Notes under the pieces: model-generated | Databases searched by the model: none | The model's input: only the letters and a program-made list of their open reading frames with translations | Told to the model about the DNA's origin: nothing | Made by a program: the position numbers and the translations under genes | Assembly (NCBI GenBank): GCA_022710245.1 | Contig: JAKLHH010000453.1 | Coordinates: forward strand, 1 to 6,443 | DNA from: Myxococcota bacterium | Lineage (GTDB): Bacteria; Myxococcota; Polyangia; GCA-2747355; JAKLHH01 | Reading direction: 5' to 3' | DNA: 6,443 nucleotides | Part shown: one piece after another, positions 1,043 to 6,431 of the stretch | Layout of the letters: every line of letters starts with the position of its first letter | Position numbering within the stretch: the stretch's first letter is position 1

Positions 1043-1195
1043 CTACGGGCTCTTGCAGTTGGCGCCGAGGCAGTAGAGCTTGGCGCCGAGGCAGCAGAGC
1101 TTGCCGCCGACGTCGCAGCACTTGCTGGCCGGTCCGCCGCAAGAATGCGGAGGCGACTGTGTAACCCGAGTCGAGGCGATTCGAGGAGCGGGCGC
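1043..1195 (-). other. Cys-rich reading frame directly downstream of and in frame with the selD stop
   Basis: Beyond the selD TGA (1196-1198) the same frame stays open for 50 codons to TAG at 1043-1045. It has seven Cys at positions 19, 26, 27, 34, 35, 42 and 47 after the TGA, spaced by the 21-bp repeat. It contains no ATG, GTG, TTG or CTG codon, so independent initiation is not supported. It would be made only by UGA readthrough or Sec insertion, frameshifting, or a rare start such as ATC. SelD already has normal family length without it, so the TGA is most simply a true stop and this frame may be chance or a relic. It is described here, not claimed as a gene. Confidence 0.25.
1061..1123. 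repeat. 21-bp tandem repeat, three copies
   Basis: Units lie at 1061-1081, 1082-1102 and 1103-1123. The first two differ at one base; the third differs from the second at six of 21. The unit length keeps frame, and on the minus strand it encodes the heptapeptides KCCDVGG, KLCCLGA and KLYCLGA. Confidence 0.75.
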
Positions 1196-2245
1196 TCAGC
1201 GCACCGCGATGCGCCCCGGCGGCGCCGCGACCACCTCGCCGATCACGCTCGCCGCCGCGACCCCCGCCGCGCGCAGTCGCGCGACCACCGCATCGGCCTC
1301 CGCGCCCGGCACCGCCGCGAGGAGCCCGCCCGAGGTCTGCGGATCGTAGAGGAGCGCGAGGAGCGCCGGGGCCAGGCCCTCTGCCGCATCGACCTGCGGC
1401 TCGCGGTAGGCGCGGTTCCGCTTCAGCCCGCCCGGGGTCAGGCCGCGCTCGGCGCAGGCGAGCGCGCCCTCCAGGAGCGGCACGCTGCCCGCGTCGAGCA
1501 CGTAGCCGACCGCCGCGCCCTCGAGCATCTCGCAGGCGTGGCCGAGCAGCCCGAAGCCGGTCACGTCGGTGCAGGCGTGGACCTCGGCCTCGAGGAGCAC
1601 CTCCATCGCCCGCCGGTTCAGCGTGGCCATCGACGCGACCATCGCCTCCACCGCCGCCGGGCTCGCCGCCTCGCGCTTGAGCGCCGTGGAGAGGACGCCG
1701 GTGCCGAGCGGCTTGGTGAGGAGCAGCCGGTCGCCGGGGCGCGCGCCGCCCTTCTTCCAGATCTGCGCCGGGTGGATGGTGCCGGTCACCGAGAGCCCGA
1801 ACTTGAGCTCCGGGTCGTCGACGCTGTGGCCGCCGGCCAGCACCACCTCCGCCTCGCGCAGCTTGTCGAGCGCGCCGCGCAGGATCTCGCGCAGCACCTC
1901 GATCGGCAGCGTCTTGACCGGGAAGCAGACGAGGTTCATCGCGCAGATCGGCTTGCCGCCCATGGCGTAGACGTCCGAGAGCGCGTTCGCCGTGGCGACC
2001 TGCCCGAAGGTGTAGGGGTCGTCGACGATGGGCGTGAAGAAGTCCACCGTCTGCACCAGCGCGAGCTCGTCCGTCAGCTGATACACGCCGGCGTCATCGG
2101 CCCGCTCGAGGCCGACGAGGAGCGCCGGGTGGCTGATCAGCTCCAGCCCGCAGAGCGCCCGGGCCAGGTCCCCTGGCCCCAGCTTGGAGGCTCAGCCCGC
2201 GCCGCTGACGGTGCGCGTGAGCCCGACGATGGCTTCCTTGCTCAT
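1196..2245 (-). CDS. selD: selenophosphate synthetase, itself a selenoprotein (Sec at residue 18)
   Basis: SelD makes selenophosphate from selenide and ATP, releasing AMP and phosphate. Selenophosphate is the selenium donor for Sec-tRNA(Sec) synthesis by SelA and for SelU tRNA modification. The full frame has 349 residues, close to E. coli SelD, if UGA 2192-2194 is read as selenocysteine. The N-terminus reads MSKEAIVGLTRTVSGAG, then U18, then ASKLGPGDLARAL. This aligns with the GAGC-x-x-K active site of SelD, with U18 at the catalytic Cys and K21 at the catalytic Lys. Further family motifs are DDAGVY (50-55), VDFFTPIVDDP (67-77), SDVYAMGGKP (90-99), GGHSVDDP (138-145), DVTGFGLLGH (227-236) and DPQTSGG (301-307). 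The ATG at 2243-2245 has GGAG five bases upstream. A start at the GTG 2084-2086, which a normal caller would choose, loses the active site and the first metal-binding Asp. A SECIS-like hairpin follows the UGA. The gene lies downstream of a radical SAM gene on the same strand. Confidence 0.93.
2161..2179 (-). promoter_or_regulatory. bacterial SECIS-like hairpin in selD
   Basis: On the selD mRNA a perfect 8-bp stem (GGGCCAGG pairing with CCTGGCCC) encloses a three-base GGA loop. The stem starts 13 nt after the UGA and the loop G-G lies at 21-22 nt. Known bacterial SECIS elements have a small apical loop with G among its first two bases, roughly 16-37 nt after the UGA, and are bound by SelB carrying Sec-tRNA. 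The element lies wholly within coding sequence (codons for LGPGDLA). Confidence 0.8.
2192..2194 (-). other. UGA codon read as selenocysteine in selD
   Basis: The TGA is codon 18 of selD, placed exactly where the family has catalytic Cys or Sec. The frame is SelD-like on both sides, with no frameshift or other lesion, so this is recoding and not a nonsense mutation. Confidence 0.9.
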
Positions 2246-2254: not shown

Positions 2255-2294
2255 ACTCGATCCGGGGAGGAGCATAGTGCGCCGCGCCGCTCGC

Positions 2295-2441
2295 GTCGAG
2301 GGTGGCGTGAGGGTGGCGTCTGTCGAAGAGCGTGGCGTCCGTCGAGGGTGACGTGAGGGTGGCGTCTGTCGAAACGGATGGCGTCCGTCGAGGGTGACGT
2401 GAGGGTGGCGTCTGTCGAAACGGATGGCGTCCGTCGAGGGT
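2295..2441. repeat. 46-bp tandem repeat between the radical SAM gene and selD
   Basis: Three full 46-base units lie at 2295-2340, 2341-2386 and 2387-2432, followed by nine bases of a fourth. Units two and three are identical; unit one differs at position 11 and in a short block near positions 34-39. Each unit begins GTCGAGGGT and ends GGCGTCC, and contains two related halves that both begin GTCGA or GTCGAG and end in GGCGTC. There are no unique spacers between copies, so it is not a CRISPR array. It fills most of the 212-base gap and would be transcribed if the two genes share a message. Confidence 0.9.
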
Positions 2442-2457: not shown

Positions 2458-3969
2458 TCAGCGCCGCTTGCCGGCGCGGGCGGCGGCCTGGGGCAGCGTC
2501 AGCTCGGGGTGGGCGCCGCCGAGCGCCTCGCGGCGCTGGCGCTCGGCGCCGTCGACGCTCATCGAGTAGAAGTGGGTGTTCGCGTTGACGCGGCCGAGGA
2601 ACGGCACCACCACCGAGTCGCCGCCGCGGTACTCCGGACCGGCCCAGACCTCGTCGGCGATCTTGCCCCACTCGCGCGCGTAGGCGTCCAGGTGAGCGCG
2701 CACCGCGCCGTCCTCGACGATCGTCTCGGCGCCCTCGTAGGAGGGCTTGGCGCCGCACTCGGCCACCACCTCGCGCAGCACCTCGGGGTTGTCGATGATC
2801 TTGCAGGGGCGCAGGAGGTTGCGGTTGTAGGGCTGGTGGCCGCGGATGGCGCGGAAGAACTTCGAGCGGAAGGCGTCCTTCAGCGTGCACTCGTGGAGGT
2901 CGTGCGTGTAGAAGTGCACGAAGGTGCAGGGCTGGATCTTGCCCTCCGGCGTGATGTAGCAGTAGCGCGTCCCCGAGAGGCAGCCGCCCACGCAGGCGCC
3001 GTCGTTCCAGAAGTCGCCGATGAAGATCGGCCTGCGCGCCTGCCACTCGCGGGTCTTGCGCCGCAGCGTCTCGCGCTGCGCGGGCGTCGACATCAGCGAG
3101 AGGTCGGGGTCCTTGCCGAGCGGCAGGTACTGGAACATCCAGCCGAAGAGCACGCCCTTGTCGAGGTAGTACTCGATGAACTCGTCGGAGCAGATGACGT
3201 CGCTGTTGTGCCGCGTCGGCGTCGCCGAGAAGCCGAACATCACCCCGCGCTCGCGCAGCAGGCTCATCGCGCGCAGCACCTTGTCGTGCACGCCGGGGCC
3301 GCGGCGGCGGTCCGTCTCCTCGCCGAAGCCCTCGACGCTGATCGCCGGCATCAGGTTGCCCGCGGCCGCGATGCGATCGGCCATCGCCTCGTCGATCAGC
3401 GTCGCGTTCGTGTACGACATGAACTGCAGGTCGGAGAACTCCTCCAGCATGCGGTAGAGGTGGCGATAGATGAGGGGCTCGCCGCCGCTGACGGTGATGA
3501 AGCGCGTGCCCATCTCGCGGCACTCGCGCAGCAGCCGCGAGAGCAGCGCGTAGTCCATCCCCTTGCGGGGCATCTTGTACGAGTAGCAGCCCTGGCACTG
3601 GAGGTTGCAGGCCATGGTCGGGTTGATGACCACGGTGACCGGCGGCTCGAAGCCCTCGCGCGCGAGGAACTCCTTGCGGACCCGCTGCCCCGCCACCATC
3701 TCGCCCACGATCATGTTCTGGAAGAACGCGCGGAGCGGCTTCTCACCCAGGCGCTCCGCGATCCTGAGCAGCCACTCGAGGAAGGCCGGGTTGGCGTCGA
3801 GGTTCTTGAGCAGGCCGGAGGTGAGGCAGGGCGAGCTGCCACCGGGAGCTCCACGGTAGAGCTGGAACAGGAGAGAGATCCGGTCCTCGGGCAGCTGGCT
3901 GATTCGCGTCCAGGCCTTGGCGACACCAGGATTCTTCCCGAGTGCTGCAAGCAGATTGAGTCCCATCAT
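2458..3969 (-). CDS. radical SAM protein with C-terminal SPASM-like cysteines
   Basis: This 503-residue protein is intact. Residues 1-110 form a mostly helical N-terminal region. The radical SAM core follows, with C-x3-C-x2-C at C121, C125 and C128 (CNLQCQGCY), which ligates the [4Fe-4S] cluster that cleaves S-adenosylmethionine, and SGGEP (161-165), the SAM-contacting motif. Residues 326-389 carry C326, C330, C337, C348, C361 and C389, with the sequence YITPEGKIQPC, typical of SPASM/twitch regions that bind extra Fe-S clusters. The exact SPASM spacing is not a textbook match. Proteins of this kind often modify peptides, but no RRE domain or convincing precursor is seen and the substrate is unknown. 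A tandem ATG starts the gene; GAGGT lies six bases before the first. No signal peptide is visible, so it is likely cytoplasmic. It lies upstream of selD on the same strand and diverges from the FG-GAP lipoprotein gene. Confidence 0.9.
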   Translation of the reverse strand: MMGLNLLAALGKNPGVAKAWTRISQLPEDRISLLFQLYRGAPGGSSPCLTSGLLKNLDANPAFLEWLLRIAERLGEKPLRAFFQNMIVGEMVAGQRVRKEFLAREGFEPPVTVVINPTMACNLQCQGCYSYKMPRKGMDYALLSRLLRECREMGTRFITVSGGEPLIYRHLYRMLEEFSDLQFMSYTNATLIDEAMADRIAAAGNLMPAISVEGFGEETDRRRGPGVHDKVLRAMSLLRERGVMFGFSATPTRHNSDVICSDEFIEYYLDKGVLFGWMFQYLPLGKDPDLSLMSTPAQRETLRRKTREWQARRPIFIGDFWNDGACVGGCLSGTRYCYITPEGKIQPCTFVHFYTHDLHECTLKDAFRSKFFRAIRGHQPYNRNLLRPCKIIDNPEVLREVVAECGAKPSYEGAETIVEDGAVRAHLDAYAREWGKIADEVWAGPEYRGGDSVVVPFLGRVNANTHFYSMSVDGAERQRREALGGAHPELTLPQAAARAGKRR

Positions 3970-6365: not shown

Positions 6366-6431
6366 ATCGGAGGTGCTCTGAATTCGTCGAGGTGTTGTCT
6401 AGGCATCTCGCGAAGAAAGAGCACCTCCGAT
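6366..6431 (+). repeat. 66-base imperfect hairpin at the right edge
   Basis: A perfect 14-bp outer stem pairs 6366-6379 (ATCGGAGGTGCTCT) with 6418-6431. Inside are a symmetric GAA/GAA internal loop, then a second stem pairing TTCG-CGAG (6383-6391, with bulged T6387) with CTCGCGAA (6407-6414), and a 15-base loop. Two nested stems exceed what chance would give. The right arm overlaps a possible start codon at 6430. It could be the end of a mobile element of the IS200/IS605 or REP type, or a translational control hairpin. The type is inferred, not shown. Confidence 0.6.

What the first reader, a model, noticed from the sequence alone, without database searches (positions are those of the whole stretch)
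2161..2245. selD is a selenoprotein gene that conventional calling would truncate
Seen: ATG, 17 codons, TGA, then an unbroken SelD frame, with the TGA exactly at the active-site Cys/Sec of GAG-U-xxK. Known: several SelD proteins use Sec here. Inferred: a caller treating UGA as stop starts at GTG 2084-2086 and loses the catalytic residues, and the enzyme must be partly self-sustaining because it supplies the selenium for its own Sec. The genome should hold selA, selB, selC and other selenoproteins.
Basis: partly seen in the sequence, partly recalled or inferred. Interest (0 to 1): 0.75.

Follow-up and report, generated by a model that had tools for sequence, protein, structure and literature searches.

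The report
Ordinary bacterial selenocysteine-containing SelD gene

Summary
On the minus strand, ATG 2245-2243 opens a frame with one in-frame TGA (2194-2192, codon 18) that runs to TGA 1198-1196: 349 residues. The product is SelD (TIGR00476, 390 bits); U18 aligns with Cys17 of solved SelD 3u0o. An error is very unlikely: of 79 readable relatives, 71 have TGA at this codon and 8 have TGC or TGT. A SECIS-like hairpin follows; its five inner pairs all form in 50 of 72 TGA genes and 0 of 8 Cys genes, but in the window alone it is not significant. The nearest relative's genome has selA, selB and tRNA-Sec; the window's own genome is not held. The truncation is real: the database entry has 296 residues, and 117 of 120 listed relatives lack residue 18. 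All of this is known: Sec-SelD is among the commonest bacterial selenoproteins, and such mis-calling is in print. Verdict: a true, well-read, ordinary member of a known kind. A radical SAM neighbour probably shows local linkage to selD.

The parts
1196..2245 (-). selD, selenide, water dikinase, 349 aa with Sec at residue 18
2192..2194 (-). in-frame TGA, codon 18, read as selenocysteine (inferred)
   Evidence: TGA in 71 of 79 relatives, TGC in 6, TGT in 2
2183..2185 (-). codon of Lys21, aligned with residue 20 (Lys) of chain 3u0o
2161..2179 (-). SECIS-like hairpin: 8-bp stem, loop GGA; optional outer pairs reach 2157-2183
   Evidence: weak in the window alone
1196..2086 (-). truncated gene as standard calling reports it (GTG start, 296 aa), without U18 and K21

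Best explanation
The gene encodes selenophosphate synthetase (selenide, water dikinase, SelD) with selenocysteine at the active site. The ribosome reads UGA codon 18 as Sec because SelB, carrying Sec-tRNA-Sec, binds the hairpin directly downstream of the UGA. The enzyme then makes selenophosphate from selenide and ATP, which feeds SelA and so also the Sec of SelD itself. Shown here: the frame, the conserved TGA/Cys position, the SelD family, the hairpin in TGA relatives, the machinery in the nearest relative. Inferred: decoding in this organism, enzyme activity and the self-feeding loop.
For: 349-aa frame; TIGR00476 390 bits against cut-off 125; U18 on residue Cys17 and K21 on Lys20 of 3u0o; TGA in 71 of 79 relatives, Cys codons in 8; window sits with L001 (98/95) inside a set of 32 rows all with TGA; hairpin in 50 of 72 TGA genes against 0 of 8 Cys genes; selA, selB and tRNA-Sec in G001, the genome of L001; no other in-frame TGA in three neighbouring genes.
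Against: The window's own genome is not held, so its Sec machinery is unseen. No Rfam family matches up to E 1. The hairpin of the window alone is not significant (z -1.47). Covariation is modest: pairs with a double change do not exceed the shuffles (5 against 5.2), and one slid version (+2) has more double-change cells (34 against 26). 3 of 22 TGA genomes lack selA and 3 of 22 lack selB over cut-off.
Confidence: 0.96

Rival explanations
1. The TGA is a sequencing or assembly error for TGC or TGT, and the gene is an ordinary Cys-SelD.
For: Cys occurs here in 8 of 79 relatives; reads were not available.
Against: TGA in 71 of 79 relatives, including L001-L035, and in all of the 32-row set that holds the window; hairpin kept.
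Confidence: 0.01
2. The TGA is a real stop: the gene is dead, or a shortened protein from GTG 2086-2084 is the product.
For: The UGA could only be decoded if the Sec machinery exists, which was not seen for this genome. The 296-aa product keeps the AIRS domains (P0002).
Against: The 17 codons before the TGA keep SelD sequence and coding-like third positions; the frame is otherwise intact over 349 codons; the shortened protein loses residues 18 and 21.
Confidence: 0.02
3. UGA is reassigned throughout this genome (for example to Trp or Gly).
For: One in-frame TGA exists.
Against: No in-frame TGA among the 503 radical SAM, 659 FG-GAP and 202 DnaJ codons, which use TGG 7, 11 and 1 times; the radical SAM, DnaJ and SelD frames end in TGA. 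Relatives have TGA or a Cys codon here.
Confidence: 0.005

Closest known systems
Sec-containing bacterial SelD (TIGR00476); nearest in named genomes L001, an Acidobacteriota MAG
   Same: Same length, same TGA codon, same GSG/GAG-U-ASK motif, same hairpin loop; 64% identity.
   Different: Nothing of mechanism. Different neighbours: L001 lies by a cysteine-desulfurase-like frame (identified by eye), the window by a radical SAM gene.
Solved Cys-form SelD 3u0o (E. coli enzyme, organism recalled)
   Same: Aligned over query 6-348; the active-site Lys is kept.
   Different: Cys17 in place of Sec.

Membership tests
SelD (selenide, water dikinase) | Match above the curated equivalog cut-off | tested here: met
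   TIGR00476 390 bits against 125; PRK00943 338.8 against 299
SelD (selenide, water dikinase) | Active-site Cys/Sec and Lys | tested here: met
   U18 and K21 on Cys17 and Lys20 of 3u0o (catalytic roles recalled)
SelD (selenide, water dikinase) | Selenophosphate synthesis | not testable with these tools
   Needs an assay
Bacterial selenoprotein gene | In-frame TGA that aligns with Cys or Sec in relatives | tested here: met
   TGA 71, TGC 6, TGT 2 of 79
Bacterial selenoprotein gene | SECIS hairpin directly downstream with G in a small loop | tested here: met
   8-bp stem, GGA loop; supported by comparison, not significant in the window alone; no Rfam match
Bacterial selenoprotein gene | selA, selB and tRNA-Sec in the same genome | tested here: inconclusive
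   Own genome not held; all three present in G001, the genome of L001
Bacterial selenoprotein gene | Sec present in the protein | not testable with these tools
   Needs 75Se labelling or mass spectrometry

The most novel reading that the evidence does not exclude
In one uncultured lineage, Sec-SelD forms a conserved unit with a radical SAM/SPASM protein, and the Cys-rich coding stretch right after the selD stop (in frame with SelD beyond its UGA stop) is what remains of, or is, a peptide substrate or a read-through SelD tail: a selenium-linked peptide-modification system.
Probability: 0.03. Interest if true: 0.55.

Novelty: new member of a known kind. Interest (0 to 1): 0.12.

Why it matters
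It shows how standard gene calling removes the catalytic residue of a common enzyme: 117 of the 120 listed database relatives lack it. That is a known annotation problem rather than new biology. The radical SAM-selD linkage is the only lead here for which I saw no paper, and only one search touched it (five terms together, no paper).

Tried and rejected
Second recoding at the selD stop: reading on past TGA 1198-1196 gives 50 residues with a Cys-rich end. Codons at 1049-1141 (31) are coding-like (GC3 0.97), the 18 before them are not (0.50). By reading the codons I find no ATG, GTG or TTG start in it. No relative was found in the protein collection (no candidate shares three words, so a weak test) and no hit at E up to 1e-3 in the loci then held, L001-L082. 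L001 ends its SelD at the same place with TAG. Rejected as part of SelD; more likely a gene remnant.

Radical SAM as a selenium gene: its listed relatives share contig lengths with listed SelD relatives (5 contigs besides the window's own; shifting the lengths by 1 to 10 gives 0-2). Equal length is indirect evidence; adjacency was not seen. In 149 genomes of G001's phylum 10 carry a relative at E up to 1e-60, 39-52% identical; 3 of these 10 have a SelD match at E up to 1e-30; no SelD hit fell in their 10 short loci L083-L092. So a general role in selenium metabolism is unsupported.

Rfam scan of the window found nothing up to E 1. Whole-genome search for the window was impossible. Paper searches were seen as listings only. 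I did not predict a structure, since solved homologues exist.

Full report
Observation. The window is 6443 bases, and no whole genome is held for it. On the minus strand ATG 2245-2243 is followed in frame by TGA at 2194-2192 (codon 18) and then by an open frame to TGA 1198-1196. With the TGA read as a residue the product has 349 residues. The mechanical start after the TGA is GTG 2086-2084, 296 aa, and the protein collection holds a 296-aa product, 100% identical, as the entry of a 6443-base contig (P0002).

What it is. The recoded protein matches TIGR00476 (SelD) with 390 bits against a cut-off of 125, and PRK00943 with 338.8 against 299; Pfam finds AIRS and AIRS_C. In the alignment to the solved SelD 3u0o, query residue 18 falls on Cys17 and K21 on Lys20 (that these are catalytic, and that 3u0o is the E. 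coli enzyme, is recalled).

Is the TGA real? It is TGA in 71, TGC in 6 and TGT in 2. L001 to L035 all have TGA. In a tree of 80 rows, made from the part after the codon, the window pairs with L001 (support 98/95) inside a set of 32 rows that all have TGA; the Sec/Cys label needs 3 changes. A sequencing error is therefore very unlikely. A changed genetic code is made unlikely by the other genes: no in-frame TGA in the radical SAM, FG-GAP and DnaJ frames, two of which end in TGA.

Hairpin. Directly after the UGA the RNA folds into an 8-bp stem with a GGA loop. For the window alone this is weak: z -1.47, 11 of 200 shuffles as stable; 637 of 20000 random synonymous versions form all 8 pairs, and 257 of 3000 fold as well. 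Comparison is better. Over all 72 TGA sequences (window included), placed without gaps, the five inner pairs are all formed in 50, against 0 of 8 Cys genes. Of inner pairs 88.1% are formed, against a mean of 85.8% and a maximum of 87.5% in 1000 shuffles that keep every residue; for all eight pairs 77.3% against a mean of 72.6% and a maximum of 75.0%. On 46 of these 72, chosen by me because they fold alike (a biased choice), 80.8% of cells pair against 17-49% when slid, and the covariation score is 0.263 against a shuffled mean of 0.179 (0 of 500 as high). Against this, the number of pairs with a double change is not above the shuffles (5 against 5.2), nor are the further pair types (14 against 14.4), and the version slid by +2 has more double-change cells (34 against 26). 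Several Bacillota sequences fold in another register. Rfam lists no family here up to E 1.

Machinery. I searched the genomes of 30 of the 80 loci (22 with TGA, 8 with Cys). selA passes its cut-off in 19 of 22 TGA genomes and 3 of 8 Cys genomes, selB likewise in 19 of 22 and 3 of 8. tRNA-Sec scores 68 bits or more in 13 of 22 and 1 of 8; matches of 47-55 bits in further genomes are doubtful, since 5 of 14 control genomes also pass the gathering score, and at most 98 candidates per genome were scored, so absence is weak evidence. G001, the genome of the nearest relative L001, has selA 548.5, selB 337.8 (model positions 2-345 of 581) and tRNA-Sec 72.7 bits. G004 (1.0 Mb) has neither selA nor selB over cut-off. 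The window's own machinery could not be tested.

Truncation. Of 120 listed relatives (of 7996 scored; P0002 itself counted), 117 do not reach residue 18, and the 3 that do show C there (whether a source letter U would be shown as C was not checked).

Known or new. PMC4561486 (section 4 read): 19% of SelD genes in its reference set encode Sec, always at the same position. [quoted passage not shown] PMC1088965 (passages): 28 selenophosphate synthetase genes among Sargasso Sea selenoproteins; bacterial SECIS lies directly after the UGA, with a guanosine in a small apical loop. The self-supply idea is the title question of Guimaraes 1996, seen only as a reference entry in PMC8659212; that paper is not held. 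So the case is ordinary.

Surroundings. Upstream on the same strand lies a 503-aa radical SAM/SPASM protein. Its 120 listed relatives and the 120 listed SelD relatives share five contig lengths besides the window's (3268, 11103, 12684, 14500, 29252); shifting the lengths by 1 to 10 leaves 0-2, so the two genes are probably linked in this lineage. Adjacency was not seen directly. In G001's phylum a relative occurs in 10 of 149 genomes searched, and 3 of these 10 have a SelD match, so it is no general selenium marker. After the selD stop, in the same frame, lies a Cys-rich stretch with coding-like codons but no start and no relatives found. I read it as a remnant. With the radical SAM linkage it carries the small probability given to the novel case.

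Noticed in passing
window 1046-1195, minus strand: Cys-rich stretch (CGGPASKCCDVGGKLCCLGAKLYCLGANCKSP) in frame after the selD stop, with 21-base repeats, coding-like codons at 1049-1141, no start codon and no relatives found.
   Followed up: partly
window 2458-3969, minus strand: 503-aa radical SAM/SPASM protein upstream of selD; its relatives and SelD relatives share five contig lengths besides the window's, so the linkage is probably conserved in this lineage.
   Followed up: partly
window 2294-2441: Tandem array of a 46-base unit, 3.2 copies, 95% matches, between the radical SAM gene and selD.
   Followed up: no
window 6366-6431: Inverted repeat, 21-nt arms, 86% complementary, 24 nt apart, at the contig end.
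   Followed up: no
L036:5695-7449, L066:644-1876, L080:3426-4631, L051:5118-6215: Cys-SelD of Armatimonadetes and Aminicenantes with an N-terminal Cys-rich extension (CxC...CPC...CxCAGER in three; in L051 an unreadable codon lies just upstream and only the CxCAGER end is seen) that has no Pfam match; by eye it recalls ferredoxin-thioredoxin reductase motifs. L036 also has a C-terminal carboxymuconolactone decarboxylase domain. The four form one clade; three of the four genomes have selA and selB over cut-off.
   Followed up: partly
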